Below, in pieces: positions 4,010-27,576 of a stretch of 36,238 nucleotides of DNA. The translations under genes were made by a program, and so were the position numbers. This DNA is from Myxococcales bacterium (GTDB lineage: Bacteria > Myxococcota_A > Polyangia > Polyangiales > Polyangiaceae), in assembly GCA_023248745.1 (NCBI GenBank), contig JAHFDZ010000026.1:1-36238 (forward strand), read 5' to 3'. Position 1 is the first letter of the stretch, and every line of letters begins with the position of its first letter. The notes beneath the pieces are model-generated. The model made no database searches, was not told the DNA's origin, and saw nothing but the letters and a program-made list of their open reading frames with translations.

Positions 4010-4079
4010 CAGGCATTCTCATCGCAGTAAAGTTTGGGTCTCGCACGCAGCAAACATCCGCCAACATTGAAGCAGGGGC

Positions 4080-5372
4080 TCATGACGCTCGTGGGTGAGC
4101 TTCAATCGAATCGGCGCCCACCGCACTTGTGGCCGTGATCGCGTCGAGCTTGAGCGCGACGCCGAGAATAATTCCCAACGCAACGGCTTCTCGCAGCGTG
4201 TTGAACGACTGGGTAACCATACCGTGCACGACGAAAAACAACGCGCTCGCGATCGCGAACACACCATACGCACGCACAAACGGAGCATGGGGTCGACGTG
4301 AGATAATCATCGCTCCGGAACGAAACAGAAGCGCGAACGCAACGAGATAGGCAACCACTCCGAAGATTCCAGACTCTGCGAGCGTGCTTGTCCAAACATT
4401 GTGCTTGCTTCCGTCTGCTGCAAAGTCGCGACGCTCCCAACCGAAGCCCGAGCCGAAAAAAATATTGCCGGCAAACCATTCGCGAATCTCGTTCTCTGCA
4501 CCTGGCAGGCGAGAGTCATAGGCGCGGTTCTGTCCGAGCTCGCCCGAGTAGCTCGGATCGAGCGTTACCAATCGATCAGACATGATGCGAAGCAGATCGA
4601 CGTCGAGCACGGCTGACGCGACAGCACCAAAAATAGCGAGGCCCAGCGCAAGCAAAGGAACGCCAACGCCAATGATGCGCAAGAGGCTTCGCCGCGATGA
4701 AGCCGGTACAAGAAAGAGAATCGGCAAAATGCCTGCCACGAGCGACACCCAATCGGATCGGCTCAGTGTTGCGATGGCGCCGACGAACGCAACCATCAAC
4801 GCGATCTCATCGAGCCCACGACCGAGTACGACGAGCCTCACGGAAATGGCGTAGGTGAGCAACATCGTTGCAAGCAGCGCGGCGAAGGTACCGTAGTCAA
4901 CCGTTCGAAGTTGGTTCACGTCGCTGAGAGGCACCGCCTGACCTCCGCGGCCGAGCACGAAGGCAATCACCAAACAACCACTGAGCGCACCCGCGAACGC
5001 AAACCACCGAAAGAAAATGCGATAATCAAACTCACGATCCACGATGGCAAAAGCCGCCCACCCACATAGAGGTGCCGCGACAAAATTTCGAAGCGTGAGC
5101 AGAAACTCATAGGTCGCGTTGCCGTTTCTAAGCGCGACGAACGTTCCGCCGAACGTCGCAAAGCCGAACGCCACAAGCAACACAGGCAGCGTTGACACGT
5201 ACGCCGCACCCGTACGAAATGCCGTGCGCCACACGCCAACGACGATGAGTATCAGCATCGCCGCATCCCAAGCGCCCAGGGGAAACCCTACGTTTACCCT
5301 GTACTCGAGCTGAAGCGTACCGCCCAAGCAGGATAGCACGATGAGAACGATGCCCAAAAACCGCGCTGACAT
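4080..5372 (-). CDS. O-antigen ligase/polymerase-like membrane protein (Wzy_C/WaaL type)
   Basis: This 430-residue, very hydrophobic protein has about ten to eleven predicted membrane helices. A large polar loop toward the C-terminus (roughly residues 265-330) contains SRLPGAENE, GSGFGWERR and then HNVWTSTLAESGIFG. The HN-x(9)-G-x-x-G pattern after a long periplasmic loop is typical of the O-antigen ligase/Wzy polymerase superfamily. Such proteins join lipid-linked polysaccharide units to each other or to lipid A core. Ligase and polymerase cannot be separated from sequence alone. It is the first gene of the minus-strand polysaccharide cluster and lies back to back with the flippase gene. Confidence 0.85.
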   Translation of the reverse strand: MSARFLGIVLIVLSCLGGTLQLEYRVNVGFPLGAWDAAMLILIVVGVWRTAFRTGAAYVSTLPVLLVAFGFATFGGTFVALRNGNATYEFLLTLRNFVAAPLCGWAAFAIVDREFDYRIFFRWFAFAGALSGCLVIAFVLGRGGQAVPLSDVNQLRTVDYGTFAALLATMLLTYAISVRLVVLGRGLDEIALMVAFVGAIATLSRSDWVSLVAGILPILFLVPASSRRSLLRIIGVGVPLLALGLAIFGAVASAVLDVDLLRIMSDRLVTLDPSYSGELGQNRAYDSRLPGAENEIREWFAGNIFFGSGFGWERRDFAADGSKHNVWTSTLAESGIFGVVAYLVAFALLFRSGAMIISRRPHAPFVRAYGVFAIASALFFVVHGMVTQSFNTLREAVALGIILGVALKLDAITATSAVGADSIEAHPRAS

Positions 5373-12752: not shown

Positions 12753-13714
12753 TTTTTTCCTTTGCCAAGTATCGCATCGAGCTGATTGTTCGGCACAAAC
12801 TTAGGGTCGGCGAGTGCACCGCTCATCGATTGACCGAAGTAGCCTTCGGGAGTCTTGGCTGGGCTTTGCGTCATCTCGAGGAGACTGCGCGGGCCTTGAA
12901 GCAGCGACTTTGTCTGCTCGTTCTTGCCTTTGTAACTCTCGCTAAATCGAAAGCGGAACGACATGTCGCTCTTCGCGTCGTTGAGTGAGTTGTCGGCGAG
13001 CGTGAGCTTGCCTTCGCCCTGAAGGTCGAGGTCTTTTCCCGACACGGAAAAGCGGGCGATCTTGACGACACCGTCTGTTACGGCTGCCTCGATTGGCAAC
13101 GTTCCGATGGTGAATTTTGGAAGACCAAGCCCAGTCTTTCCATCGCCGAGTGCCATGTCTGCGAGTTCGAACTTGAGGGTGCCATTCGCCTTGGATGCCT
13201 TTCCCTCAGGCATTTGAAGATGCACGACGCCGCCAAGCGTGCCCTCGGCTGGAAGACCGATGGCTCGCGTGAGAGGCGTAACGTCGCCAAGCGCCAACCC
13301 CTTTGCGACGATGTCTGCAACGCGTTCCTTTGACCCAAGCTCGAGCGAGCCTGTGACTGTGCCGCCCATGACCGCTGCGTCGAACTTGACGATCCTCTTC
13401 CCGATGAACAGATGCAAAATCTGAAGTCGCGCCGTCACTTCATCGATCTGAAGCTCGGTGGGCGGCTTGCTCGAGTCTACGGAAGGCGTGCTGAGCTTTA
13501 GCTTTTGAACACGAAGGCCAGTAACCCAGTAGCTATCGAGCCGCTCGATGCTGAGCCGCTGCCCAGTGCGCTGCTGCACGTTGAATAGATCGACTTGTCG
13601 CTGCTTCACTGCGTCGAACGGGAAGAAGACGCTCAAGCCGATGGCAAACGTGACCAAGTAGACAAATGGATATGCAATCCAACGAAGGATGCGCAGGACC
13701 TTGGCGCGGTTCAT
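12749..13714 (-). CDS. gspN: Type II secretion system protein GspN
   Basis: This 321-residue protein has one N-terminal membrane helix (about 13-32) and a long periplasmic part rich in beta strands. The repeated pattern of short strands (LDLQGEGKLTLADN and the closing SGALADPKF) resembles GspN and AsmA-like domains. GspN is an accessory inner-membrane component found in some T2SS. The position directly after gspM, with four-base overlaps on both sides, supports the call. C-terminal residues are Lys-rich (GKGKK). Confidence 0.88.
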   Translation of the reverse strand: MNRAKVLRILRWIAYPFVYLVTFAIGLSVFFPFDAVKQRQVDLFNVQQRTGQRLSIERLDSYWVTGLRVQKLKLSTPSVDSSKPPTELQIDEVTARLQILHLFIGKRIVKFDAAVMGGTVTGSLELGSKERVADIVAKGLALGDVTPLTRAIGLPAEGTLGGVVHLQMPEGKASKANGTLKFELADMALGDGKTGLGLPKFTIGTLPIEAAVTDGVVKIARFSVSGKDLDLQGEGKLTLADNSLNDAKSDMSFRFRFSESYKGKNEQTKSLLQGPRSLLEMTQSPAKTPEGYFGQSMSGALADPKFVPNNQLDAILGKGKK

Positions 13715-14256
13715 GGCTTGTCCTTCTTGTCGGCAATGTCGTTCCGATCGTACGCCGATACCCCGAACTCGACGTCGTATGCATCGGGCTCACTGCCGCG
13801 CTTTCGAACGAGCAAGCGTGAGACGCTCAGCGGATACGAACTCTTGGCGATCCGCTCGAGGAAGAGCGCGACGCCACGCATGCCTGCCTTGCGCACATGC
13901 ATCACGTGATGCCGCTCTGAAAAGCGCTTGCCAACTTTTGCTTCGGCACGATCGGCGTGATCGGCAACATCGAGTTTTTCGGCGCGCGCTTCTTGATCGA
14001 GATAGCTGCTCAAGCTTGGAGCCCTGCTCCCATAGCGGTGAGTGAGCTGTTGCTTGCGTGACTTCGCTTCGGCAACTTTCGGCCGGGCTTCGTCGACGGT
14101 GGCAATCACGTCGACCAGAGCATCAACTTCTGCGCGGCGCTTGGTCACAATGATCTGTGACACAACAAGCCCGACGATGAGCAACACACCCGGCAGCGCG
14201 AAGAGCAAGATGCGGAGCGTTCGCTTTTCGCGATCGGAGATTGTAACGGCCATCAC
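13711..14256 (-). CDS. gspM: Type II secretion system protein GspM
   Basis: This is a 181-residue bitopic protein. A short cytoplasmic tail (SDREKRTLRIL) leads to one helix (about 15-35) and a coiled-coil-prone periplasmic stretch (38-75), then a small ferredoxin-like domain ending YDVEFGVSAYD. GspM partners GspL in the inner-membrane platform. Sequence similarity in this family is always weak, so the call rests on size, topology and position between gspL and gspN. Starts and stops overlap both neighbours by four bases. Confidence 0.85.
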   Translation of the reverse strand: MMAVTISDREKRTLRILLFALPGVLLIVGLVVSQIIVTKRRAEVDALVDVIATVDEARPKVAEAKSRKQQLTHRYGSRAPSLSSYLDQEARAEKLDVADHADRAEAKVGKRFSERHHVMHVRKAGMRGVALFLERIAKSSYPLSVSRLLVRKRGSEPDAYDVEFGVSAYDRNDIADKKDKP

Positions 14257-15752
14257 TTCCCTCCAGCGCTGCTGCTCGGCACAGCTTGTGTGGGTTTTGC
14301 TTTGACAACGTCTTCGGGGCAGCGAATTTCCCAGTCCATGTCGTACTTCTGGCGATTCGTTCCTGGCTGCGCGCTGATGCTGCCCATCTTGACTTCAGCA
14401 AAGCAGCGTTGCTTCTTGAGTGCCTCGCGCACCTTGTCAGCGTCGGCCGGCGTGTCGACAATCCCGCGCATGGTGACGCGATTTTTCTGTACGTTGAGCT
14501 CTTCGACGTCGTGCTTCAGGTCGCTCGGGATTGCTTCTGACAGGCGCACCATCACGTCGAAGCCGTCGGCGTGAGGCATCGGATCCTCTTCGTTGGTGCC
14601 CGTCTGATCATCGACGAGCTCTTTGGCGCGACTCGGGCTGTCGGTTCGTTCGCCGAATACCTGTTCCGTTGAGTCGCCCAGGTGCCTTTGTAGACTCTCT
14701 TGCTGCACCGAGAGCACGTGAAGACGGGCAACCGAGGAAAGACAGAGACTCAACGTGAGCGCGACGCCAAAACCGATCAGCGCCGGTGCCTTTTCGCGTA
14801 CCCACGCAAAGCCGCGCTCATAACTCAGCTCGCCACGACGCAAGTCGAACGAGTGCGTCTTTCCGGAAAGCGACATGGCGATACCAATCGCCTTCGCAAA
14901 CTTCGCGAGTTCGCCCATTTGTGGCGCAGCCGCAGCATTCACGTCCATTGAGAGCTGCGTGATCGCCTCGACGGGTAGCCCCAACTCGCGGCCAAGAAAC
15001 GCGGCTGCACTTGGAACGAACGCGCCACCACCACACAGGTAGCCAATGGTTGGCATTCCACCGCTCTGAGCCTTGTACGCCGCAAGGCTGGTTCGCACTT
15101 CACGCGCCAACTTTGGTGCGCTCCCCGGAAGACCCGATGTACCGACCGAAAGTGTGCGCGCAAATAGCGCCGTGCCTCGTTCGACGACGAGGACGTCTGT
15201 CGTCTTTGTGCCGATGTCGATCACAACCACACACGAGTGCTCAGTCGACACGGGGAGAAGGCCGATCGCACCTGCGAGTGGAAATGCACCTGCGCCAATT
15301 CGTTCAGGTTCTTGACCCGTTGCGGCTTTGACGAGTTCGACACTTGCGCGCACGTCGTCTGTCTTGGAGACCGTAACCATCACGCGCATCTCGTTCGCGT
15401 TTGTGGATTCGAGTTTGCGATGGTCGAACACGGCATCTGCGATGTCGAAAGGGAGCTGGGAATCGAGCTCAAACGTGAGAATTTCTTGAAGCTGCTTGTT
15501 CGCACTCGCAGGAAGCGTGAGCACTTTGGTCGACACAAGCGACCCCGCAAGCGCTACCGCCAAGGCATCCGAATTTGCGAGCGTCGCTGTGCCCAGCGCG
15601 CCTCTCACCGCCTCGGTGATCGCGAACTGCACGGGTTGATCTTGCGCGACATCGACCGCGCATAGGCCAAGCAGCTCGAGTCGACGCGACTGAGCACGCA
15701 GCACGGCAACTTTGACCGCAGCTTTTCCGATGTCGATACCAATCCAGGCCAT
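14253..15752 (-). CDS. gspL: Type II secretion system protein GspL (PilM-like actin fold)
   Basis: This 499-residue protein opens with an actin/PilM-like cytoplasmic domain: IGIDIGKAAVKVAVL at the start, FELDSQLPFDIADA near 94-107 and a second phosphate loop VVVIDIGTKTTDVLVVERG near 174-192. A membrane helix follows at about 330-352, then a charged linker and a periplasmic ferredoxin-like domain (residues about 395-480). GspL recruits the GspE ATPase to the membrane and binds GspM. The length is somewhat above the usual 380-450. An eight-base gap separates it from gspK; its stop overlaps gspM. Confidence 0.92.
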   Translation of the reverse strand: MAWIGIDIGKAAVKVAVLRAQSRRLELLGLCAVDVAQDQPVQFAITEAVRGALGTATLANSDALAVALAGSLVSTKVLTLPASANKQLQEILTFELDSQLPFDIADAVFDHRKLESTNANEMRVMVTVSKTDDVRASVELVKAATGQEPERIGAGAFPLAGAIGLLPVSTEHSCVVVIDIGTKTTDVLVVERGTALFARTLSVGTSGLPGSAPKLAREVRTSLAAYKAQSGGMPTIGYLCGGGAFVPSAAAFLGRELGLPVEAITQLSMDVNAAAAPQMGELAKFAKAIGIAMSLSGKTHSFDLRRGELSYERGFAWVREKAPALIGFGVALTLSLCLSSVARLHVLSVQQESLQRHLGDSTEQVFGERTDSPSRAKELVDDQTGTNEEDPMPHADGFDVMVRLSEAIPSDLKHDVEELNVQKNRVTMRGIVDTPADADKVREALKKQRCFAEVKMGSISAQPGTNRQKYDMDWEIRCPEDVVKAKPTQAVPSSSAGGK

Positions 15753-15760
15753 GCGTTCTC

Positions 15761-17212
15761 CTACTCGATTCGAAAATAAAGAAGTCTTCCGCCATTGGCG
15801 AGTTGCTGTGGAACGGCACTTGGCGCGGGCGTTCCGGTTGGTGCGGGCGTTGTTGATTGAAGCCCTGTTTGCTGCGCAGGTCGAAAGTCGAGCACGGTGT
15901 GAATCTTGACGCGGATGTCGCGCGAACCAGGAGGTGGTGCTGCCCGCACTTCACCTTCGCCCGCATCTCTTTCCGATGGCGCCTCTTTGGGGGTCTCTGT
16001 CGCCTTGGTCTTGCGCTCCTTCACGACACCAACCGCGTAGATCGAAAAAACCTTGCTCTCCGTGGCGATCATTTTCGTAAAATCACCTTCGGAAAGAAAC
16101 TTGACGGGCTTAATCCCTAGGCCCGCGAGCATGGGCCCGATCATCCCGCCGCCTTTTGCGGTCGTCACAAACTCCCTTGGTGATCCAAAGATTGGAGCAC
16201 CCATGCTGAACGCCTTTGCCATTGAGATTCCGCTCACGAAAGCGGCCATTTGAGTCGGGTCAGTACAAACCTCTGTGCCTTGCACAGCACCGGCGCACAC
16301 AAGTGAGAGCAACGTTGCGGCGTTCGCGGAGTTTACGTTCACGGTGCCTTGGCCCCACACGGTGACGTTCCTCTTTTTCGGATTCGTCGCATCGGGATCA
16401 ATGAGCGTAAACCAAAGGTCGTCGCTTAGTCCGCGCACCATGTGCAGTTCTTCGAGCGAGTCGTATGGCGCGTTCTTTCGCTTATAGGGCTTCTTGAGCG
16501 ACGAATAGAACGTGTCTTCGATCGCATTGCTCGCGGCGCCGTTTGCGCGAACATCGCAGTTGTACGCTTGCTCGTCGAAGTCGGCCCAGTCGACCATCGC
16601 CGAGCACAGTTGTAAGCGATCGGTTGTCGCGCCTTGATCGTCTCGCGTCTCAAACAACGGATTCAAATTCAGCGGAGCGAAATGCGACATCAATTGTTGC
16701 GCAAGCCTAAGCTGCGTCGCCGGGCTTGAACCACCCGAGTTCACGTTGATCTTGGCGTCTTCGTCGACAATCTGAAGCTCGAACTTTCCGCCTTTGAGGC
16801 CCACATTCTTGGCACCTGTAAGGTCGAGCCCTGCTGTTCCGGCAAACTCACCGGATGCTTCGTCATCATTGAACGCACCGAGCAACAAGTCGGCGTACTC
16901 CCAAATGGGAAGCTGCGGCGGCGTGCGCTTCATCATCATAAAGAGAGGCGCCAACGCTTGACGCATGGATGGCTCAGCCGAAAGTAGCAATCGCGATAGA
17001 TAGATCGCACTGCGCGCGTGGTACTCAGCCTTCATGCTGTCGCGGTGCGCCATCGCCGCGCCAATTTCCGCACTTGTTTCTTCTTGAAACTCAGCGAGCA
17101 TCGACGCGAGAACAGCAATGGCGCCGATCACCATGACAAGCGCTACGCCACGCTCACGCTTGCGCGCACGCCGAAGGCGAGTGACCTGAGCAGACAAGGC
17201 GGCCTCGGTCAT
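15761..17212 (-). CDS. gspK: Type II secretion minor pseudopilin GspK
   Basis: This 483-residue protein has a basic leader ending KRERG, then the processed-like segment VALVMVIGAIAVLASML. As expected for GspK, the pilin-type Glu at position +5 is missing. The large globular part follows, including the SAM-like helical region with NVNSANAATLLSLVC near 305-320. GspK caps the pseudopilus tip with GspI and GspJ. It is longer than many GspK (300-350), with an acidic, Pro-rich tail (about 405-470, including PAPTGTPAPSAVP). The start overlaps gspJ. Confidence 0.93.
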   Translation of the reverse strand: MTEAALSAQVTRLRRARKRERGVALVMVIGAIAVLASMLAEFQEETSAEIGAAMAHRDSMKAEYHARSAIYLSRLLLSAEPSMRQALAPLFMMMKRTPPQLPIWEYADLLLGAFNDDEASGEFAGTAGLDLTGAKNVGLKGGKFELQIVDEDAKINVNSGGSSPATQLRLAQQLMSHFAPLNLNPLFETRDDQGATTDRLQLCSAMVDWADFDEQAYNCDVRANGAASNAIEDTFYSSLKKPYKRKNAPYDSLEELHMVRGLSDDLWFTLIDPDATNPKKRNVTVWGQGTVNVNSANAATLLSLVCAGAVQGTEVCTDPTQMAAFVSGISMAKAFSMGAPIFGSPREFVTTAKGGGMIGPMLAGLGIKPVKFLSEGDFTKMIATESKVFSIYAVGVVKERKTKATETPKEAPSERDAGEGEVRAAPPPGSRDIRVKIHTVLDFRPAQQTGLQSTTPAPTGTPAPSAVPQQLANGGRLLYFRIE

Positions 17213-17925
17213 TGGGTGATCCCGAAGGCAAGCGGCAACTGCAACGGCAGCATGAACTTCGTCGTCAACCGAATGTCAGCCGCGGGCGGTTCACTCTTGA
17301 GCACCAGAGTAATGCGCACTTCGACCGGGATACGACCCAGCTGCATGTTGGACTGTGTGGAGTCCCATCGATCAACCCATTGCAACGTCGATGGTTCGAA
17401 GTACTTCACCTGGAACTCTTTCACGTCTTCGGCAAGAACCTGAACGATTCCTCCTTTTCTGAAATCGACATCGATCGGACTCTGCTCGCGGCGCACAAGA
17501 TCGAGCTTGTCTGCTTGCGATTTATCTTTGGGTCGCGGCCTCTCGTCTCGCGCTGTAAAGAAACTGATCTCGGCCTGATCGGATTCTTTCGCATCACGCA
17601 ACAAGCGCCGGTGGGCAAACGCTGTAAAATCGACCCGCGCAAAGTCGCCGCTCATCGAACTGACAAAGCCCGTGTTGCGCACAACGAGCGCAGTGTTCGC
17701 AGGTTGGTGCACCGAAAGATATGCACTCTGCATTTCGCGCGCGATGCGGTCGAGCGCTTGCCGACCTTCGCGCGTGCGTTCGGCGCGACGCTGTTCGGAT
17801 CGCCTGCCGCGACCAAGCGTATCGAACGTGCCATAGATCAAAACGGACACCATCGCGATGAGTCCGATAGTGAGCATGATCTCGACGAGCGTCATGCCGC
17901 GCTGCAAACGTTGACCGGTGTTCAT
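17209..17925 (-). CDS. gspJ: Type II secretion minor pseudopilin GspJ
   Basis: This 238-residue protein has a clear prepilin signature: leader MNTGQRLQRG, then MTLVEIMLTIGLIAMVSVLIY with Glu at +5 of the mature form. The GspJ core is recognisable in the EGRQALDRIAREMQSAYLS helix and in the later VEVRITLVLK strand. GspJ is part of the pseudopilus tip complex with GspI and GspK, consistent with its position between them. Both ends overlap neighbours by four bases. Confidence 0.93.
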   Translation of the reverse strand: MNTGQRLQRGMTLVEIMLTIGLIAMVSVLIYGTFDTLGRGRRSEQRRAERTREGRQALDRIAREMQSAYLSVHQPANTALVVRNTGFVSSMSGDFARVDFTAFAHRRLLRDAKESDQAEISFFTARDERPRPKDKSQADKLDLVRREQSPIDVDFRKGGIVQVLAEDVKEFQVKYFEPSTLQWVDRWDSTQSNMQLGRIPVEVRITLVLKSEPPAADIRLTTKFMLPLQLPLAFGITQ

Positions 17926-18614
17926 TTGAAGGCACCGTCCGTCAGCACGCCACCATCACCATCGGGGTTCATGGTCGCCGCCAAGCCTGTTCGCGCAGGA
18001 TCGGTAATGAACTGGACGAACGAAAATGTCTTCTCAGTGATGCCTTCGCGCCACTTCACCGTCACGGTGACTCGACGAATGCCAATCTCAAGAACGGGCT
18101 TGAGCGAGGGATAGAGAAGGGTGAACGCCATCGACACAAGACCGCCCGCGCCTTGCTGGCCGTACTGTCCTGCAGCACTCTGACCGATGGCCTGAAGACC
18201 GCCGTCCATGTTTACCGCAGGCATGCCACCATCGAGCGCGCCTGCAGCAGCGGCGAGCGAGGCCATACCCGTTGAGCCGCCGTCGACAGAGCTGGACGTG
18301 TTCGGCATTGGTAACACGACGCGTTCTATTTTCCACTCGCACGAATAGCCGCGGTGCTCGTCCTCTTCGCAACAGTGGTCCGCAGAGTCGATCTCGTCAA
18401 TGAGCGGATAGCCCTTGATGATGAGGCGCTCTTCAAGCTCGGTCATGCGACAACGACCAAGAGCCGTCGCCTTTGCCATGCGCGTCGCATTCGAATTAGA
18501 AGCCACCAGGCCAGTTTGCGAGGCCATGACCAAACTGATCGCAAGGCTGAGGATACCAACGGCGATCATGACTTCGAGGAGCGAGAACCCTCTAGATGCG
18601 TTTGCTCGCCTCAT
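17922..18614 (-). CDS. gspI: Type II secretion minor pseudopilin GspI with Gly/Ala-rich insert
   Basis: This 230-residue protein has a prepilin cleavage site after Gly9 (ASRG, then FSLLEVMIAVGILSLAISLV, Glu at +5). GspI usually has about 120-130 residues. Here an insert of roughly 57 residues (about 104-160), rich in Gly, Ala, Ser, Met and Gln, breaks the core before the ITVTVKW-like C-terminal strands (RRVTVTVKWREG). Cys81, Cys82 and Cys92 could pair. Four-base overlaps link it to gspH and gspJ. Confidence 0.9.
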   Translation of the reverse strand: MRRANASRGFSLLEVMIAVGILSLAISLVMASQTGLVASNSNATRMAKATALGRCRMTELEERLIIKGYPLIDEIDSADHCCEEDEHRGYSCEWKIERVVLPMPNTSSSVDGGSTGMASLAAAAGALDGGMPAVNMDGGLQAIGQSAAGQYGQQGAGGLVSMAFTLLYPSLKPVLEIGIRRVTVTVKWREGITEKTFSFVQFITDPARTGLAATMNPDGDGGVLTDGAFK

Positions 18615-19339
18615 CGCCCTTCGTCCTTGCGCTCGGACAATTCGGTCTCGTCGGTGATCGCTTTGAGTTCACGCGCTTCGCTGTAAACCGTCGCTTTGCC
18701 AGTGAGCGGACTTGTTTCGACGCTGACGATTGTCTCGTCCATACTTGGAGCGCGTCCCTTATCGCCGATGCTCAGCTGAACCACTGCGCGTTCGGTTTGA
18801 CCGCCTGGCCAGAAGTAAAGATAGGCGCGACCGTTCGCGCGCGGTTCATCGTCGTGCGTTGACTGCACGTGGCGAAATCGAATACCGGGCTGCAACTTGA
18901 GTTTGCCCTTTTCATCGGCCTCTGCAGTGCCCGACGCAAGATCGAACGGCACCATACGGTAGGTAGCGCGACCAATTTGCGGCGGCTGATTGTAGGTCTT
19001 GCCCTCTGTAATCGCGGCCTTCTCGGCGAGCGTTGCGGGGTCAGCACCCGCCGACGCCGCGACGCTGTGCGTCTGCACGAGCATCGGTGCGTCGCTCTCT
19101 TCCATCCATACGAGGTTCTTCTCGATGTCGAAAACGAGGCGCGTTGTGCGCGAGCGCGCTGCTGCGTGAAAGTAAGCGACTCGAATCGCCGAAGTCACTG
19201 AAGTTGACGACCGCCTAAGGCGAGCAGCCGGGAGCTTGGCGGATGCCCCACCAATCGCGACCGTGAGCAAAGCGACGAGAACGATCACGACCATGATCTC
19301 GACAAGCGTCATGCCGCGCTGTGATCGTGCCGACTTCAT
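18611..19339 (-). CDS. gspH: Type II secretion minor pseudopilin GspH
   Basis: This 242-residue protein has the leader MKSARSQRG and a mature N-terminus MTLVEIMVVIVLVALLTVAI with Glu at +5. The region after the helix (LRRSSTSVTSAIRVAYFHAAARSRTTRLVFD) is typical of GspH/FimT proteins. It is a minor pseudopilin that helps join tip and shaft. It is longer than usual, with an extended loop around residues 75-160. About 60 bases separate it from gspG; it overlaps gspI. Confidence 0.92.
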   Translation of the reverse strand: MKSARSQRGMTLVEIMVVIVLVALLTVAIGGASAKLPAARLRRSSTSVTSAIRVAYFHAAARSRTTRLVFDIEKNLVWMEESDAPMLVQTHSVAASAGADPATLAEKAAITEGKTYNQPPQIGRATYRMVPFDLASGTAEADEKGKLKLQPGIRFRHVQSTHDDEPRANGRAYLYFWPGGQTERAVVQLSIGDKGRAPSMDETIVSVETSPLTGKATVYSEARELKAITDETELSERKDEGR

Positions 19340-19401
19340 CGCAAACTTCTCTCACTTTCACGTTGTTCGCTCTGTGCTCGCTTCCTCGATCGCGTCCTTG
19401 A

Positions 19402-19818
19402 TCACTTCGCAGGCACCCGAATGTCGTCTTCGGTGTTCTCTTTCTTGTCCTTGCCAAATGAGATGACAACCGGCTCGGCGTCGTTGCAGACAATCTTCCA
19501 CTTGTTACCCCACGGATCGGTCGGTTCGACCTTTTCGATCAGGCTCGCCTTGCGGAGCGCATCGATCGTCGGGCACTCGTCGTTCTCGGTGTTTTGCTGC
19601 TTCCAGATTTTTGCTGACGACTGCAGGCTCTTGCCGGACGTATTGGCCAGTTGAATTCTTGCGTTCTCAGCTCTGGCAAACACCGCGTAGCCAATCGCGG
19701 CCGTTAGAGCACCGATAATCGTGATCACGATCATGATCTCGGTCAGCGTCATACCGCGCTGGCGGCGGCGGCGGCGCTGTGCGGATGTGAGTTGGTTGGG
19801 TAACTTGATGATGTTCAT
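19402..19818 (-). CDS. gspG: Type II secretion major pseudopilin GspG
   Basis: This 138-residue protein has a long, very basic leader (QRRRRRQRG) cleaved after Gly22, then MTLTEIMIVITIIGALTAAI with Glu27 at mature position +5. The GspG hallmark DPWGNKW is at 101-107 and a Gly-Lys-Asp acidic loop (FGKDKKENTEDDI) follows, the usual calcium-binding end. Cys82 and Cys111 are placed to form a disulfide. It builds the pseudopilus shaft in the periplasm. A diverged paralogue lies directly upstream. Confidence 0.95.
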   Translation of the reverse strand: MNIIKLPNQLTSAQRRRRRQRGMTLTEIMIVITIIGALTAAIGYAVFARAENARIQLANTSGKSLQSSAKIWKQQNTENDECPTIDALRKASLIEKVEPTDPWGNKWKIVCNDAEPVVISFGKDKKENTEDDIRVPAK

Positions 19819-19858
19819 TTCTCGCCTCGTGTCGTCAGTAAGTCAGTTACGAATCGCC

Positions 19859-20275
19859 TTATTCCACGCGGTCAAGACCGTATGGTAAACCATCTGGACC
19901 ATCGCTCAAAACGTCAACACCGTGCTCATCGCGTCTGCCTGGGCAGACCATGCGAAGAGGTCTTCCCCACGCATCCGTCGGCGCCCTTCGGGCGTAACCC
20001 TGAGCGACAAGGTCGTTCCATTGCTTCGGACATTCGCCTGGATGATCGCTTCGAAACGCAGTGAGTTGGCGGTACGCGCTGATGATCGAAGCGCGCGTCG
20101 CCCGGATCGACGCCAGGTGTTCCTCCCGACGTCGAAGTGAAAACACGCTCACAATCACGAGGGCGACCAAAAGAACTTGGCGCAGTCGCGTTCGCGCGAG
20201 GCGTCCGACAAGGCCACGCTTGCGTTCCCATGGGAGGTATACGTTCGACTCGGTTGTTCGACGGCGAAAGATCAT
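19859..20275 (-). CDS. GspG-like paralogue lacking the prepilin motif
   Basis: This protein has 138 residues, exactly the length of its neighbour GspG. It shares EC at 81-82, T-D-x-W-G at 100-104, Cys111 and an acidic loop with Gly (LSDGPDG) near the end. It lacks the Gly, hydrophobic residue and +5 Glu prepilin signature. Instead a basic N-terminus (RTRLRQ) leads to an ordinary membrane helix at about 32-48. It therefore probably stays anchored in the inner membrane and is not processed into the pseudopilus. The start overlaps the gspF 3' part stop (ATGA). The GspG-fold origin is convincing; the role is unknown. Confidence 0.82.
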   Translation of the reverse strand: MIFRRRTTESNVYLPWERKRGLVGRLARTRLRQVLLVALVIVSVFSLRRREEHLASIRATRASIISAYRQLTAFRSDHPGECPKQWNDLVAQGYARRAPTDAWGRPLRMVCPGRRDEHGVDVLSDGPDGLPYGLDRVE

Positions 20276-20700
20276 GGTCCGCCTCCTGCCGACACGTCGT
20301 TCATGTTGACCATGGGCATCAGAATAGCCACGGCGATAAAGCCGACAATGCCACCCATGAGCACCATCATGACTGGCTCGAGCAGAGCCGTCAGACCTTG
20401 CACGCGATTCTCGACCTGAACGTCGTAGGCTCGCGCGGCGTTTTCGAGCATGCCCTCGAGCTCACCGCTCTTCTCACCCACGGCAATCATATGGGTGACC
20501 ATTGGCGGGAATTCTTTGCTGCGCTTGAGCGGCCCCGCAATGGATTCACCTTCGCGAATCTGGCTGCTTGCTTCATCGATAATTTGCTGAAGGCGCAAGT
20601 TACCAAGCACCGTCTTGACGATGCCCATTGCGTTGAGCAAAGGGACGCCGCTCTTAAGAAGCGTCGATAACGTTCGCGCAAAACGGGAAATCGCCAACAT
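20272..20700 (-). CDS. gspF: GspF, C-terminal part (after an in-frame amber codon)
   Basis: These 142 residues are the second cytoplasmic domain and last membrane helix of the T2SS platform protein GspF. ARTLSTLLKSGVPLLNAM is the repeated GspF motif, followed by MIAVGEKSGELEGML and the C-terminal helix PVMMVLMGGIVGFIAVAI. The frame is continuous with the upstream gspF part; only a TAG at 20710-20712 separates them. The ATG at 20700 comes nine bases after the TAG triplet and has no Shine-Dalgarno sequence. It could be a restart, a broken gene, readthrough or a sequencing error. The stop overlaps the GspG-like gene. Confidence 0.8.
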   Translation of the reverse strand: MLAISRFARTLSTLLKSGVPLLNAMGIVKTVLGNLRLQQIIDEASSQIREGESIAGPLKRSKEFPPMVTHMIAVGEKSGELEGMLENAARAYDVQVENRVQGLTALLEPVMMVLMGGIVGFIAVAILMPMVNMNDVSAGGGP

Positions 20701-20709
20701 TCGAATGAG

Positions 20710-21693
20710 CTAGCCAAAAATGGGAAGCTTGAGCACCAGCGTGTCGCGCCACAGGAGACCTCTCGGCGACTCGAGGTACTTGAAGCCGCGCGATAGGAGG
20801 AACCCGATCAACAGACCGCCGCCACAACCCATTACGTACGCAACCATGTCCTCGACTTGCGTGAGTGCGACGACCCACATTGCGCTCGCAAAGCCAGCCG
20901 CAAGCAGCCACTCAGCACCGAAGACTTCCCCTGCCTTCTTTACCTTGGGAGCCGACTGACGGACGACGATTGCACGGCGAACGAGATTGAACGCAAGGAT
21001 CGTCATGACGCCACCGAAGGTCTCGGTCGATGAAACGACCCTCGACACGAAGATGAGCGCTTGCGTGTACCAGGGCAACTCTTGCCCGAGGTTGTCGTAG
21101 ATTTTGCTCACTTGTGGAACGACGGTCGTCATCATCAGACTCACGAGCCCAAATCCGATGATCGACATCAGCGCTGGATAGGCGAGTGCGGCACTCACCT
21201 TCCCTTTCAGCTTTGCTTGGCTCTCGAGAAAATCGCTCAAACGTTCGAGCACGACTTCGAGCGTTCCTGACGCTTCACCAGCCGCCGCCATGCTTACGTA
21301 GAGGCCTTCGAACATTTTCGGATGCGCTTCGAGTGCTTTCGCGAAACTGCTGCCCTCGTTGAGAGCGTCGCGAACCTGCGTGAGCGCGCGTTGCAGATCT
21401 GGTTTTTCGACCTGTTCGACCATCGCCGAGACAGCCTCGACGAGCGGGATCCCTGCGCGGACTAGCGTCGCCAGTTGACGCGTCATCATCGCGATGTCGG
21501 CTTGATCAACACTCTGAAATAATTTGCTTCCGCCGCTTGACGATGCAGAAACTTTACCTTCTGACGCCACCGTCAGCATGACGCCATCACGCTTGAGCGC
21601 CGCGCGGAGGACCTTCACGTTGTCAGCGTCACGAACGCCTTTGACTTCCTTGCCAGACGCGACAACCAGCCCGCGGTACTCAAAAACTGCCAT
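20710..21693 (-). CDS. gspF: GspF, N-terminal part (ends at an in-frame amber codon)
   Basis: These 327 residues hold the first cytoplasmic domain (ARQL-type motif MMTRQLATLVRAGIPLVEAV at about 69-88, then AAAGEASGTLEVVLERL) and several helices. The frame stops at TAG just after LKLPIFG. The corresponding position in an intact GspF is followed by the second cytoplasmic domain, which here continues in the same frame. Compared with typical GspF (about 400 residues) the joined protein would have 473, because of an insert of about 69 residues (218-286) with an extra hydrophobic helix. It starts three bases after the gspE stop. Confidence 0.88.
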   Translation of the reverse strand: MAVFEYRGLVVASGKEVKGVRDADNVKVLRAALKRDGVMLTVASEGKVSASSSGGSKLFQSVDQADIAMMTRQLATLVRAGIPLVEAVSAMVEQVEKPDLQRALTQVRDALNEGSSFAKALEAHPKMFEGLYVSMAAAGEASGTLEVVLERLSDFLESQAKLKGKVSAALAYPALMSIIGFGLVSLMMTTVVPQVSKIYDNLGQELPWYTQALIFVSRVVSSTETFGGVMTILAFNLVRRAIVVRQSAPKVKKAGEVFGAEWLLAAGFASAMWVVALTQVEDMVAYVMGCGGGLLIGFLLSRGFKYLESPRGLLWRDTLVLKLPIFG

Positions 21694-21696
21694 CGC

Positions 21697-23547
21697 TCAC
21701 ACCCTCCCGGTTGGAGGCGCCGATGGCATCGAGCCAGAGATGGGCAACGCAGTCGAAGCGGGCGCGACCTCGAGCTCGGCATCTTCTTGAGTCGCAGCAA
21801 GAACCTCCTCGACCGTTGTCATGCCAGAGAGAACCTTGCGTGCTCCGTCGTCGCGCAACGAATCCATGCCCGCTTCAACAGCGGCGCGCTTGATCGTCTT
21901 TGCGTCCGCGTTCTTGAGGACGAGTGGGCCAACCGCGTCGTCCATCAGGAGAAGTTCGTAAATGCCGCGACGACCGGTAAATCCGGTGTCGGAGCAGTGA
22001 TCGCAGCCCTTTGGGCGATAGAAAGTCGGGCGCTCGATGAGGTCGGTTTCGAGCGGATCGAGCTCGCTCAAATGCCTTGGGTAGTACCGGGATTCGCGAT
22101 CGCGACGCTTACGCCGTGTTCGCATGCGCTCGCGCGTAAGCCCAAGCTCCTCGAGCTCGAACGGCTCGGCTGGGTAAGCTTCTTTACAATGTGGGCAGAG
22201 CACACGAACGAGTCGTTGCGCGAGAACGCCGATGACACTTGAGCGGATGAGAAACGGCTCGACGCCCATATCGATGACGCGCGTGAAAGCGCCTGCGGCA
22301 TCGTTAGTATGGATCGTTGACAATACGAGGTGACCGGTGAGCGACGCGTTGATCGCGATGTCGACGGTCTCTTTGTCGCGGATTTCACCAACCATGACCA
22401 CATCTGGATCTTGGCGAAGAAACGCACGAAGAGCGCTCGCGAAGGTGAGCCCAATCTTCGTTTGAACGTGAACTTGGTGAATACCGGGAATCTCGTACTC
22501 GACCGGGTCTTCTGCCGTCAGGATATTGATGTCGGGCTTGTTGATTCGGTTGACGCACGCGTAGAGCGTCGTCGTCTTTCCGGAACCCGTCGGTCCCGTC
22601 ACCAAAATGATGCCGTCGGGACGACGAATGAGCCCGTCCATCAGCAAATAGTCGCGATGGGCAAACCCAAGTTGCGGCAGATCGAGCATGACGCTCGACT
22701 TGTTAAGAAGACGCATGACGATGCGTTCGTAACCGCGACTGGTCGGAATTGTGCTGACGCGGATGTCAAAGCTTTTGCCCGCGATGCGCTTTGCGATGCG
22801 ACCGTCTTGTGGCAATCGCTTTTCGGCGATGTTCAAGGACGATTCAATTTTGATGCGTGAGATAATGCTGTTCATGAACGCGCGTGGAGCCCTTCGTGCG
22901 ACGTGAAGTTCACCGTCGACGCGGTAGCGCACGATCAGCTCTTTCTCTTCCGGCTCGATATGAATATCGCTCGCGCGTTCTTTCATCGCTTGAAGAAAAA
23001 GCGAATTCACCCAACGAATCACGGGCGCTTCGTCGTCTGAATCGAGGATGTCGCTCGCGCCGTCTTCTTCAACGACCGCTTCTCCATCTGTTTCGAGTTC
23101 GCCACCGCCAGCTTGCCGTTCGTAAACACGGTTGATCGCTTCTTCGATGCGCTCAACACCGCCAACGAGAAGCTCGACGGGCTTTCCGAACACGATACGC
23201 AGATCATCCGAAGCCGCTGTGTCGAACGGATTGGCCACGATGGCGTGGACCGCATCGGCATCTTCGGCAAATGCGAGAACGCAGTGCGACTTCGCAAACG
23301 TGATTGGCACACGCACCGCGAGTGCGGTCGGAATGTTCACGTGGTCAATTTGCTCGACGATTCCGACGCCCGCTTCTTCTGAAAGGGCACGCGCCATGAC
23401 GAGTTCGTCAGCCGCAGACGTACGCACAGCGGCTTCGAGAATGTCGCAGCCACGCTCGGATACGGTCGCGAGCAACGCCTCAAACTTCGCGGGATCAAGA
23501 ATCCCGCGCCGAACGAGGATGTCGCCGATGAAGCGTGCTTCGCTCAT
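21697..23547 (-). CDS. gspE: Type II secretion ATPase GspE
   Basis: This 616-residue ATPase powers pseudopilus assembly at the cytoplasmic face. An N-terminal GspE/PilB domain (1-145, IGDILVRRGILDPAKFEALL) is followed by an acidic linker (150-173). The NTD2/ATPase core has SDIHIEPEE at 193-201, Walker A GPTGSGKTT at 318-326, Asp box, VMVGEIRDKET at 385-394 and GHLVLSTIHTNDA at 405-417. Four cysteines (C451/C454 and C515/C518) form the zinc subdomain. The stretch between the pairs is unusually long (about 60 residues) and rich in Arg. It overlaps gspD by four bases. Confidence 0.96.
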   Translation of the reverse strand: MSEARFIGDILVRRGILDPAKFEALLATVSERGCDILEAAVRTSAADELVMARALSEEAGVGIVEQIDHVNIPTALAVRVPITFAKSHCVLAFAEDADAVHAIVANPFDTAASDDLRIVFGKPVELLVGGVERIEEAINRVYERQAGGGELETDGEAVVEEDGASDILDSDDEAPVIRWVNSLFLQAMKERASDIHIEPEEKELIVRYRVDGELHVARRAPRAFMNSIISRIKIESSLNIAEKRLPQDGRIAKRIAGKSFDIRVSTIPTSRGYERIVMRLLNKSSVMLDLPQLGFAHRDYLLMDGLIRRPDGIILVTGPTGSGKTTTLYACVNRINKPDINILTAEDPVEYEIPGIHQVHVQTKIGLTFASALRAFLRQDPDVVMVGEIRDKETVDIAINASLTGHLVLSTIHTNDAAGAFTRVIDMGVEPFLIRSSVIGVLAQRLVRVLCPHCKEAYPAEPFELEELGLTRERMRTRRKRRDRESRYYPRHLSELDPLETDLIERPTFYRPKGCDHCSDTGFTGRRGIYELLLMDDAVGPLVLKNADAKTIKRAAVEAGMDSLRDDGARKVLSGMTTVEEVLAATQEDAELEVAPASTALPISGSMPSAPPTGRV

Positions 23548-26102
23548 GGCTCCACTTTGAGGATGTTGCGAACAGGAGGCTTGCCATCTACGCGCGGTGC
23601 CGTCGGGGTAACGGCGCCAATATCAGTTGGCGGCGGGGCTGCAGCGCCGCCACCCAGCGTACGAATAGGTGCCGGCAGTTCGAGCGGCCTGCCGGGCACG
23701 TGCGTCTTGACCGCCTTGTGACCAAGGAGCGAATCGAGAGCACGACGCTCTTCGACTGCAACGTAGGACTGCCGAACCATCTCGAGCGCGCCATACGCTC
23801 GCCCGTAGTCCTTCGGCGGATCGTATTCGTTGTCACTAAACACGAAGTAGCGCTGAACGAACTCTTCCTTCTCTTGTATTTTTCGCTCGAAAACACGTCG
23901 TAAATCATCTTGACTACGCACAATGTACGGCGTCAGAACGAGAAGAAGGTTCGACTTTGCGAGTTCTTTCTTGTCGCTACGAAACAGCGCGCCAAGGAGC
24001 GGAATGTCGCCCAGAATTGGCACCTTCGTCTGACCACGAACAGACCTCGAACGCATGAGACCTGCAATCACGACGGTCTGCTGATCGCGAACCGTGAGCG
24101 TTGTCTCGGCAGTGCGCTTTCGTGCTCCGCGCACACCGAGCGTCCCTTCAGGTTCGGTCGGCTCGCTGTACTCTTCTTTGATCTGCAGCCGCACTTCGTC
24201 AGATTCGTTGATGAACGGCTTGATCGAAACCTTGATGCCAGTCTGCAGCGGGGCACTACCCCCTCCGTAGCCGCTTCCCATGCCGCCGAACGCGCTCAAT
24301 GCGCCCGCCGCCCCAGGAATTCCCGAAAGCGCACCGGTGAAACCCGAGTTGGTCTGCTGTGGAAGCATCTCACCGACCTCGATCTTCGCTTCAATGTTGT
24401 CGGTCGCGAGAATGTGCGGTGTCGCGAGCAAGTCAGAATCACCCGATGCGGCGATCATGTTAATCGCAAGACCGACCGATGGGATTGCAGTGCCGAAGAT
24501 CGCTTCGCTCCCCGGAATCGTTGGCCCGCGAAGGCCGAGCGCAAAGTTCTGAAGCGCGGTTGCGGCACCTGTACCGCTAAACGCAGTGGCCGAACCCAAT
24601 GGATCGAGACCACCCGCAATGAGCGATCCAGGCGCACCAACGTCGGGAATGCCGCCGTGAAATTTGATGCCAAACTCATCTTTGCGCGTGACGTTGAGAT
24701 CCATCAGCGCGGCTTCGATGAAGACCTGTCTGCGCGGCTTGTCGAGTTGGTCAATTACCTTACCAATTTGCGCATAGTCTCGCATCGACGACGTTATGAT
24801 CAGAGAGTTGGTCGCCTCGTCCGCGATGATCTTAACCCCCGCCTCGAAGACACCGCCCGGCTTCTGACCGCCCGCGGGTTGCCCGCCACCGCGGCCGCCC
24901 ATTTGGGCTGCGCTGTCGCTTACGCCGTTAAGAACCGTTGCGAGCTTTATCGCTTCGGCGTACTGCAGCGGGCGAACACGAACGTCACCCTCGCCCTTTT
25001 GTTGAACGTCAATTACCTTGATGAATTCGAGGGCACGCAAATAGGCACGTTCGGTTGCCACGATGATGACCGAATTGGTGCGTTCATCTGGGAACACTTT
25101 GCTGATCCGCGAATCGCCGCCACCCGTTGCCGCCCCGGCGGCTGGCTTAGCCCCGGCCGCGGGTGCAGCACCTCCCTTGATGTCGAAGAGTTCGTTGAGG
25201 CGCGCGGCGACGTCTGTCGCGGTGCCATAGTTCATCGTTTCGATCCAAACTTGCTCGCTCGCACCACCAACGTCGATCTCCTCGAGAATGTGGAGCATGC
25301 GACGAATGTTGGAACCCGTATCGGTAATGATGAGCATGTTCGTCGCCGCGTGAGGGGTCACGTCGGCGTTGGCGCTGCTCTTGAATTGCTTGAGCAAATC
25401 TGCCGCTTCTTGCGCGGAGATGTTTTGCAAGCGATGCATCCGCGTGATCAAACGTTCTTCGGCAGGCGCCGCGCGACCAGGTCCGTAGATCGTCGTGTTG
25501 AGACCGGTCGCGGTGCCTTTGACCTCAACAATTTTGTAGAAACGTCCCGACGGAATGACCGCAAGCCCTTGCGTGTCCAAGATCGAAAGAAACGCTTGAT
25601 ACGCTTCTCCGACCGTGACTTTTTGAGGAGAAAATACCGTGACCTTATTCGCGCGAACGTTACCGGTGATGATGAAGCGCTTTCCCGTGAGCTGGCCGAT
25701 GACTCGAATCAGTTCACCGAGATCGGCGTCTTCGAGTGAAAACGAAACGCGATAGCCATTCCCACGGGGTTCGTAGTCGACGCCTTGTTCGAATTGTTTC
25801 AGGCCGTTGGTATCGCCTTGTCGCTTCGCCAATGAAATGGGTGCGCCTGTTTGGGCTGGTGTCTGCGGCGTTGGCGGCGGAGTCGTTGGCGTCGCCGTAG
25901 GAACTGGAGGTGGAGTTCCATTCTTGTCAACCGGCTTGCCCATGAGGGGGCGACGAATTCGACCTCCGTCAACGCGATCTTTGCGACCCGAACCTTCAGG
26001 CGCAGCGGGAACGGGCACGGGACTGACTTCCTCCTGTGCGAACGCGATACCGCCGTTCGACAGAAACCAGAACGTCCCGAGACAAAAGGCACGCTTAATC
26101 AT
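23544..26102 (-). CDS. gspD: Type II secretion secretin GspD
   Basis: This 852-residue protein has a signal peptide (about 1-22, ending FAQ) and a Pro/Thr-rich stretch. N0 to N3 domains follow: VSFSLEDADLGELIRVIG for N0, then repeated KH-like units each with the TNMLIITD, TNSVIIVAT or TNSLIITSS strand. The secretin domain ends with the hallmark VPILGDIPLLGALFR and LLLVLTPYIV. It forms the outer-membrane channel. Gly/Ala/Gln-rich linkers break N2 and N3. The C-terminal tail (about 720-852) is Pro-rich and may bind a pilotin. A pilotin gene is not recognised here. Confidence 0.96.
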   Translation of the reverse strand: MIKRAFCLGTFWFLSNGGIAFAQEEVSPVPVPAAPEGSGRKDRVDGGRIRRPLMGKPVDKNGTPPPVPTATPTTPPPTPQTPAQTGAPISLAKRQGDTNGLKQFEQGVDYEPRGNGYRVSFSLEDADLGELIRVIGQLTGKRFIITGNVRANKVTVFSPQKVTVGEAYQAFLSILDTQGLAVIPSGRFYKIVEVKGTATGLNTTIYGPGRAAPAEERLITRMHRLQNISAQEAADLLKQFKSSANADVTPHAATNMLIITDTGSNIRRMLHILEEIDVGGASEQVWIETMNYGTATDVAARLNELFDIKGGAAPAAGAKPAAGAATGGGDSRISKVFPDERTNSVIIVATERAYLRALEFIKVIDVQQKGEGDVRVRPLQYAEAIKLATVLNGVSDSAAQMGGRGGGQPAGGQKPGGVFEAGVKIIADEATNSLIITSSMRDYAQIGKVIDQLDKPRRQVFIEAALMDLNVTRKDEFGIKFHGGIPDVGAPGSLIAGGLDPLGSATAFSGTGAATALQNFALGLRGPTIPGSEAIFGTAIPSVGLAINMIAASGDSDLLATPHILATDNIEAKIEVGEMLPQQTNSGFTGALSGIPGAAGALSAFGGMGSGYGGGSAPLQTGIKVSIKPFINESDEVRLQIKEEYSEPTEPEGTLGVRGARKRTAETTLTVRDQQTVVIAGLMRSRSVRGQTKVPILGDIPLLGALFRSDKKELAKSNLLLVLTPYIVRSQDDLRRVFERKIQEKEEFVQRYFVFSDNEYDPPKDYGRAYGALEMVRQSYVAVEERRALDSLLGHKAVKTHVPGRPLELPAPIRTLGGGAAAPPPTDIGAVTPTAPRVDGKPPVRNILKVEP

Positions 26103-26147
26103 TCGCTTTTCACCACGTTCGTTGTTCCCAAACTCGCGATCAGGCGC

Positions 26148-26390
26148 TCACGACTTTTGCTTTGCGGCTTCGGCCTTCGGATTCTGCGGAACCGTCGCCT
26201 TGTCTGATGCGTGCGCGCCTGATGTCGCATTGTCCCTGGCTGGAGGTGCAGATGTCACATTCGCGACAGCCAACGCTCCAGTCACAAGACCGATGAAAAG
26301 AAAGCTCGAGCCCGTGATCAGCGCAATCCATCGCAAGCTCAGGTTGAGCAAGCTAGCGTTTGGCAACTCAATTAACGATTCAGCTGACAT
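26148..26390 (-). CDS. Small one-helix membrane protein between gspC and gspD
   Basis: From the ATG at 26390, preceded by GAGG at five bases, the product has 80 residues. A start at 26408 would add six (MKFEVS). One strong hydrophobic segment (WIALITGSSFLFIGLVTGALAV is its run) is followed by a 35-residue Ala/Pro/Lys-rich tail, probably periplasmic. I do not recognise the family. It lies between gspC and gspD in the same orientation, 45 bases before gspD, where no gene is expected in standard T2SS operons. The tail composition and position suggest a real, lineage-specific part of the inner-membrane complex, but this is inference. Confidence 0.6.
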   Translation of the reverse strand: MSAESLIELPNASLLNLSLRWIALITGSSFLFIGLVTGALAVANVTSAPPARDNATSGAHASDKATVPQNPKAEAAKQKS

Positions 26391-26455
26391 CGAAACCTCA
26401 AACTTCATTTCTTGATTGAATAAGCATTCATCGAAGATGATCGCCTATTAGTAAC

Positions 26456-26469
26456 ATGAAAAGTTTCAT
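26456..26469. repeat. Palindrome just after the gspC stop
   Basis: ATGAAA and TTTCAT flank AG, a perfect 6-base inverted repeat directly following the gspC stop codon. The 26409-26469 gap is clearly AT-richer than its surroundings. It could be a regulator site or part of an internal promoter, but no clear -35/-10 pair was found. Confidence 0.35.
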
Positions 26470-27426
26470 TTACTTCATGTGATACTGAACGTTCACTGGC
26501 TTACCGCCTCGCTGAACGCTGACGCTCACGTCCGGCGCAGTCGTCAACCGCGTGTATGCCTCGAGCATCTTGGTCGGATCGTTCATATCGAACCCGTTAA
26601 TGCCGGTCAGAACGTCGCCATTTTCGATACCAAGCTGTGAAAGCACCGTGTCCGGACGAATGCCAAGAAGGCGTTGGCCTATTGTCTTGCCGTTCTCGTC
26701 CTTTACAGGCGTGCTCCGCGCGAACTTCATGAGCTCGGCCCAGTTGTCTTTGATCTTGTCGATGACGGAGCGATCCACATTGAACTCGTTCGCCGAGATC
26801 TTCTGAATGCCCTTTTTGATGTCCTCGGGTGTTGCTGAAGCACCACTCTTTGGAGGAGGCGGTGGGCCAGCGTCCACTACGCCGGGTCCGGTTGCTGGCA
26901 TCGATGATTGGAAAAGCACAACCTGGCAACGTTGGCCGGATTGAGTGAGCCAAGCGCGATCCCATCCGATGAAATGAACTGTGCGTCCGTTGAGGTCGTC
27001 ACCTTTTCTGCGCATGTACGATTTGTCCGCAACCCCAAACGAAGCGAACGAATACTCAGGATCGGTTGATGCCGCGATGATGGTGATCTTCATTCCTTCG
27101 CAGAGTGGATCGGCCATCGGGTCGCCAGCTTCGAGTTCAGTCGCACCGGCATCTTCGACGGCAGCCGGCGCGTTGAGTCGCCCCGTGACAGAATCGAAAG
27201 GGTTGCGCATCAAAATAGTGTCGGCGCTGGTGCTCTTCTGTGTGGTTGTGTTGATGGCGACAGGAACCGGAGCAGGAAGCGAAAGCGGCCCGCCATCCGT
27301 GCTATCGCGGAGCAACGTCGAACCAAACCATTGCGCCACAGCCTGAGACTGCATCGCTGCAAGCGTCACCGTGAGACCGCCGAAGACGACCCAAAAGTGC
27401 TTGCGTAAGAGTTGGTCAGCAGACAT
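26470..27426 (-). CDS. gspC: Type II secretion protein GspC with C-terminal PDZ domain
   Basis: The ATG at 27426 is chosen because AGAGAGGA precedes it and residue 1 falls just before the cytoplasmic tail (MSADQLLRKHFW); an upstream frame to 27564 adds 46 implausible residues. The 318-residue product has one membrane helix (about 11-30), a Ser/Pro linker and a homology region (about 95-170) that binds the secretin N0 domain. A Pro-rich stretch (PPPPPKSG) follows, then a PDZ domain (about 235-318) with RLLGIRPDTVLSQLGIENGD. GspC links inner-membrane platform and GspD. It is the first gene of the operon. Confidence 0.92.
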   Translation of the reverse strand: MSADQLLRKHFWVVFGGLTVTLAAMQSQAVAQWFGSTLLRDSTDGGPLSLPAPVPVAINTTTQKSTSADTILMRNPFDSVTGRLNAPAAVEDAGATELEAGDPMADPLCEGMKITIIAASTDPEYSFASFGVADKSYMRRKGDDLNGRTVHFIGWDRAWLTQSGQRCQVVLFQSSMPATGPGVVDAGPPPPPKSGASATPEDIKKGIQKISANEFNVDRSVIDKIKDNWAELMKFARSTPVKDENGKTIGQRLLGIRPDTVLSQLGIENGDVLTGINGFDMNDPTKMLEAYTRLTTAPDVSVSVQRGGKPVNVQYHMK

Positions 27427-27441
27427 TGCGTCCTCTCTTCT

Positions 27442-27457
27442 AGCGAGACCCGTGCCA
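27442..27457 (-). promoter_or_regulatory. Sigma-54-like -24/-12 element before gspC
   Basis: Read on the minus strand, TGGCACGGGTCTCGCT matches the sigma-54 consensus TGGCACG-N4-TTGCW at all but one fixed base. The GG and GC pairs have the right spacing. The expected start of transcription would be near 27431, only about five bases before the ATG, so the Shine-Dalgarno sequence would be lost or split. This makes chance a real possibility. Confidence 0.3.
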
Positions 27458-27576
27458 AGCGAACAAGCTTGAATTATGCGGGAATTTAGCGAAGAAGACG
27501 AACTTGCCGCAGACAGGTTGTCGAGCAAGAGGAGCAGCGAACGCCCGGTTTGACAATTTGGCAAGCGGCCGAGGGG

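What the first reader, a model, noticed from the sequence alone, without database searches (positions are those of the whole stretch)
19402..20275. Tandem GspG paralogues, one without a prepilin signal
Two adjacent 138-residue proteins share Cys82, Cys111 and T-D-x-W-G at the same residue numbers, which points to duplication. The upstream copy lost the Gly/Glu+5 motif and kept a plain membrane anchor. It could be a membrane-fixed GspG domain that guides or caps pseudopilus assembly. I know of no described T2SS component of this kind.
Basis: partly seen in the sequence, partly recalled or inferred. Interest (0 to 1): 0.6.

Follow-up and report, generated by a model that had tools for sequence, protein, structure and literature searches.

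The report
Membrane-fixed GspG twin in T2SS
Polyangium-type soil bacteria carry, beside the gene for the main building block of their type II secretion piston (GspG), a second GspG-shaped protein that lacks the processing site needed to enter the piston and is predicted to stay anchored in the inner membrane with a highly conserved cytoplasmic tail; it is present in nearly every genome of the order examined, and I found no description of it.

Summary
Observation confirmed. The gene at 19859-20275 (-), here called X, sits between gspF and gspG in a complete gspC-M cluster and encodes a GspG-related protein without a prepilin signal. It matches Pfam T2SSG above cut-off, and its AlphaFold2 model (pLDDT 89.7) is closest to solved GspG structures (Z 11.5, 1.6 Å over 85 residues). 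It is not a decaying local copy: X was found in 127 of 132 genomes of the order (Polyangiales), is under purifying selection (dN/dS about 0.12) and forms one clade apart from GspG. One further family keeps X with a different conserved tail, and at least two other Myxococcota lineages appear to have made a prepilin-less GspG copy independently (single origin rejected, p = 0.0002). Best reading: X is a non-polymerising, GspG-derived subunit of the assembly platform that links a cytoplasmic partner to incoming GspG. Fold, conservation and synteny are supported; partners are not. A fused X-GspG prediction was inconclusive (pTM 0.42). No description was found in the papers searched.

The parts
19859..20275 (-). 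gene X: GspG-related protein without prepilin signal, 138 aa; ATG overlaps the gspF stop (ATGA)
20192..20275 (-). X residues 1-28: basic tail, predicted cytoplasmic
   Evidence: side of the membrane is inferred
20225..20233 (-). X residues 15-17, Pro-Trp-Glu motif
   Evidence: Invariant in the 28 orthologues; in 85 of 91 distinct X
20126..20185 (-). X residues 31-50: membrane anchor, first part of the long helix 31-77
   Evidence: hydropathy and predicted structure
19862..20125 (-). X residues 51-138: GspG-like domain with Cys82 and Cys111
19402..19818 (-). gspG, canonical major pseudopilin
19738..19755 (-). prepilin cleavage motif of GspG, G22-MTLTE27 (Glu+5)
20272..21693 (-). gspF, interrupted by one in-frame TAG at 20710-20712
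14253..15752 (-). gspL with PilM-type cytoplasmic domain, candidate partner of the X tail
13711..27564 (-). whole gsp cluster, gene order C-D-E-F-X-G-H-I-J-K-L-M

Best explanation
X is a dedicated, non-polymerising subunit of the type II secretion inner-membrane platform in Polyangiales, derived from an ancient duplication of gspG. Supported by data here: GspG fold (predicted), no prepilin site, one hydrophobic anchor, conserved tail, fixed place between gspF and gspG, purifying selection. Inferred: having no cleavage site, no Glu5 and a charged tail of about 28 residues, it cannot be drawn into the pseudopilus and stays in the inner membrane. Inferred and less certain: the PWE tail docks on a cytoplasmic platform part (the PilM-type domain of GspL is the first candidate, GspE or GspF the next) while the GspG-like domain and long helix contact GspG, so that X holds or positions GspG subunits at the base of the growing pseudopilus, as a fixed docking subunit or template.
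For: GspG homology and fold. No prepilin motif in any orthologue. Found in 127 of 132 genomes of the order, between gspF and gspG. dN/dS about 0.12. Near-invariant PWE tail; f17 has another conserved tail at the same place. GspL has a PilM domain, nearest to PilM structures; the genome's PilN begins MVRVNLLPERK, X has NVYLPWERK. Prepilin-less GspG copies arose again in other lineages. Pilins need cleavage and normally Glu5 to assemble (PMC10191384).
Against: No interaction was shown. The fused X-GspG prediction has pTM 0.42. GspL keeps its own PilN-like segment with or without X, so the PilM groove may be taken. The tail motif lacks the Asn of PilN and is shifted by one residue. A few members of the order keep X without PWE. 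Basic residues lie on both sides of the anchor (median +6 and +4), so the topology is not settled by charge.
Confidence: 0.5

Rival explanations
1. X is a terminator, cap or buffer: it pairs with GspG in the membrane and limits or ends pseudopilus growth, or protects unassembled GspG, without needing a cytoplasmic partner.
For: GspG fold and position next to gspG; the downstream copies of L067, L138 and L140 have no PWE tail.
Against: The tail of X is more conserved than its anchor, which points to a cytoplasmic partner. X-GspG docking inconclusive.
Confidence: 0.25
2. X is a substrate- or secretin-side adaptor: its periplasmic GspG-like domain binds cargo, GspC, GspD or GspM rather than GspG.
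For: X has conserved residues of its own that GspG does not share (R58, T60; compare GspG rows).
Against: No partner data; close linkage is to gspF and gspG.
Confidence: 0.12
3. X is an unprocessed minor pseudopilin that still enters the filament.
For: Pilin-like long helix and lobe.
Against: No cleavage site and no Glu5 in any orthologue; a charged tail of about 28 residues precedes the anchor; the cluster already has gspH-K.
Confidence: 0.04
4. X is a decaying duplicate of gspG without function.
For: It lost the signature of its family.
Against: Order-wide conservation, dN/dS about 0.12, invariant residues of its own.
Confidence: 0.01

Closest known systems
GspG / PulG / EpsG / XcpT, major pseudopilin of type II secretion
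   Same: T2SSG domain, predicted fold, operon; homologous
   Different: No prepilin site or Glu5; conserved PWE tail; own clade
PilN of type IV pili (and the PilN part of GspL)
   Same: Short cytoplasmic tail with a hydrophobic-Pro motif before a single anchor; PilN tail binds PilM (5eou, 2ych)
   Different: Periplasmic domain is GspG-like, not PilN-like; motif only resembles; likeness of working at most, not kinship
Tip pilins lacking Glu5 (GspK type)
   Same: Pilin-fold subunit without Glu5 and with a special place in the machine
   Different: Tip pilins are processed by the prepilin peptidase (PMC10128026); X has no site, and the cluster has its own gspK
Second GspG of the mitochondrial T2SS-like system
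   Same: Two GspG paralogues in one system (PMC8134430)
   Different: Eukaryotic GspG homologues are reported to keep the maturation features; X does not

Membership tests
GspG major pseudopilin | T2SSG domain | tested here: met
   PF08334 29.8 bits, cut-off 21
GspG major pseudopilin | GspG fold | tested here: met
   Predicted model; top matches are GspG structures, Z 11.5
GspG major pseudopilin | Prepilin cleavage motif and Glu+5 | tested here: not met
   Absent in X and all aligned orthologues
GspG major pseudopilin | NCBIfam equivalog TIGR01710 cut-off (88.85 bits) | tested here: not met
   X 30.9 bits; the canonical GspG of the window also fails with 45.2, so this row separates little
GspG major pseudopilin | Calcium site of the C-terminal loop | tested here: inconclusive
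   S124 and D135 conserved; ligands not mapped on a structure
GspG major pseudopilin | Polymerises into the pseudopilus | not testable with these tools
   Needs experiment
Component of the type II secretion system | Encoded in the gsp operon and co-conserved with it | tested here: met
Component of the type II secretion system | Needed for secretion | not testable with these tools
   Needs deletion
PilN (type IV pilus) | PilN domain PF05137 | tested here: not met
   No match in the Pfam scan up to E 1
PilN (type IV pilus) | Cytoplasmic tail that binds PilM | tested here: inconclusive
   Similar motif and a PilM-type GspL; binding not tested

The most novel reading that the evidence does not exclude
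X is a permanent dummy pseudopilin: a GspG-shaped subunit locked in the membrane by a platform-binding tail, on which the pseudopilus is built or against which it is released at each stroke. This would be a core piece of the type II secretion motor of a whole bacterial order, and prepilin-less GspG copies would have arisen more than once.
Probability: 0.35. Interest if true: 0.78.

Novelty: new variant of a known kind. Interest (0 to 1): 0.6.

Why it matters
How pseudopilin subunits are handed from the membrane to the growing filament, and what holds the base of the pseudopilus, is to my knowledge not settled. A natural GspG that seems fixed in the membrane and carries a conserved cytoplasmic handle is a ready-made probe of that step: deleting it, or changing three residues of its tail, tests whether the platform grips the filament base through such a subunit. 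It also adds a likely component to the secretion machine of a large order of soil bacteria, one that current family models label simply as T2SSG.

Tried and rejected
Decaying local duplicate: contradicted by order-wide conservation and dN/dS. Single origin of all prepilin-less GspG copies in Myxococcota: rejected (AU p = 0.00018), though overwriting of an old copy by gene conversion from gspG could mimic this, and the groups were named after the first tree was seen. X-GspG docking by folding the natural fused frame of G021 (L014) with paired rows read through the stop: pTM 0.42, not informative. PilM groove vacated in GspL of X-bearing genomes: not seen, the PilN-like segment of GspL is kept with or without X. 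The single-protein scan of genome contigs found nothing and A1 gave no usable pattern; the seven-row alignment A2 found 55 loci, all but one of them from titles that are myxobacterial or unassigned delta/proteobacterial, and one Aminicenantes. Literature: no paper found on a prepilin-less GspG in a T2SS operon; MasABK of Myxococcus came up by word match but is unrelated. The library lacks most subscription journals, so an earlier description cannot be excluded.

Full report
Observation. The window carries a complete type II secretion cluster on the minus strand: gspC 26470-27564, D 23544-26102, E 21697-23547, F 20272-21693 (split by one TAG), X 19859-20275, G 19402-19818, H, I, J, K, L 14253-15752 and M 13711-14256 (family matches; GspM matches its family only weakly and is named partly by place). 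X and GspG are both 138 aa. They align over 76 columns at 24% identity with Cys82, Cys111 and T-D-x-W-G in register. Both score above the Pfam T2SSG cut-off and only GspG has the prepilin motif. The genome has no other T2SSG gene that was detected.

Distribution. X-related matches were found in 37 of 39 relatives. In an order-wide search with the 72-row alignment A3, 128 of 132 genomes at least 90% complete gave a match, and in 127 the match is X; in G110 only GspG was found. Named relatives are Sorangium, Polyangium, Minicystis and Labilithrix, so I take the order to be Polyangiales. In the larger loci that were read, X lies between gspF and gspG. GspG was detected beside X in all but three (L101, L103, L122) of about 119 loci, many of which overlap or repeat. 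The gspF-X junction is usually short or overlapping, ATGA in the window.

Beyond the order. In the class-wide search, the loci I read show these patterns: gspG alone (L064, L066, L142, L143, L145, L146, L148), gspF-X-gspG with another tail (family f17, nine loci L129-L137; also L065), a prepilin-less copy downstream of gspG (L138, L140), and one genome with a prepilin-less copy upstream of gspG (L141). A further downstream copy occurs in another class (G059, L067). L139 was read for gspG only.

Evolution. In a tree of 184 GspG-type domains, 89 X sequences form one clade (support 97/99) apart from GspG. With the class-wide loci added, the f17 copies fall inside the X clade (96/94), while the L140 and L067 copies sit beside their own GspG. 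Holding all prepilin-less copies together is rejected (p-AU 0.00018); without L140 and L067 it is not (p 0.63). So the X lineage is old, and a prepilin-less GspG has probably arisen at least twice more. With about 100 columns the deeper forks are not resolved, and gene conversion could make an older copy look recent. Between the window and its nearest relative dN is 0.17 and dS 1.37.

Anatomy. X has a basic tail of about 28 residues, a transmembrane stretch, and the continuation of the same long helix into a GspG-like lobe (helix 31-77, mean pLDDT 89.7). The closest solved structures are GspG of Vibrio, EHEC and Klebsiella (3gn9 Z 11.5, rmsd 1.6 over 85 residues), and a profile of X finds only GspG in the PDB (best E 1.4e-8). 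Invariant in the first 28 orthologues: P15 W16 E17, R58, T60, C82 P83, P99, D101, W103, C111, S124, G126, D135. The tail motif with PWE is found in 85 of 91 distinct X. In f17 the corresponding place carries roughly [IVM][VIL]LG[KDE]K. A tail conserved inside each clade but different between clades is what a binding site for a co-evolving partner would look like (inference).

Mechanism. Established knowledge: pilins need cleavage of the leader and normally Glu5 to enter the filament, Glu5 pairs with the N-terminus of the neighbouring subunit, and GspL is a PilM-PilN fusion (PMC10191384; overview in PMC10128026). X has neither cleavage site nor Glu5, and its charged tail cannot easily leave the cytoplasm, so it should stay in the membrane (inference). 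GspL in this cluster has a clear PilM domain (69.8 bits); its best PDB match is PilM of 3jc8, and 5eou is a PilM-PilN construct (that 3jc8 is from Myxococcus is my own knowledge). The genome's PilN begins MVRVNLLPERK, X has NVYLPWERK. I therefore propose that the tail of X docks on the platform, GspL first, and that its GspG-like face meets GspG. Against a simple PilM-groove model, GspL keeps its own PilN-like segment in genomes with and without X. The X-GspG contact could not be tested: the natural fused frame of G021 gave pTM 0.42.

Novelty. I found no description of a prepilin-less GspG in a T2SS operon in the open-access library. The mitochondrial system has two GspGs in some lineages, but eukaryotic GspGs are reported to keep the maturation features (PMC8134430). 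X is a homologue of GspG but, lacking the defining prepilin signal, should not be filed as a pseudopilin. I rate it a new variant of a known kind: an apparently undescribed, order-wide T2SS component built on the GspG fold.

Limits. Many of the genomes are metagenome-assembled. Topology is inferred, and basic residues lie on both sides of the anchor. Structures are predictions. No interaction was demonstrated.

Noticed in passing
window 20710-20712 (-): gspF is interrupted by a single in-frame TAG; the same gene is open in the two same-genus genomes checked, so this is either a private mutation or an assembly error.
   Followed up: partly
L014:1498-2364 and L091:2425-4041: X and GspG lie in one open frame without a stop between them; in L091 the frame also runs on into GspH. 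A simple polyprotein would be hard to fit to the membrane topology; internal starts or assembly errors are possible.
   Followed up: partly
L067:6019-6426 (-), L140 (about 3650-4100, +), L138 (about 1080-1470, +): Prepilin-less GspG copies downstream of gspG; at least the L067 and L140 copies look like independent duplications. Some of their N-termini resemble cleavable signal peptides.
   Followed up: partly
L125:3833-4273 (+): Candidatus Aminicenantes encodes a stand-alone GspG-like domain behind a plain hydrophobic anchor, with no other gsp gene recognised in the stretch read.
   Followed up: no
G015/L061, G172/L062, G025/L063, G167/L058: X is kept but its PWE tail is lost or altered in a few members of the order; these are natural test cases for the role of the tail.
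   Followed up: no
G212 contigs C35 and C36: This genome has several further GspG-type matches away from its X-gspG pair, perhaps a second T2SS-like cluster; not read.
   Followed up: no
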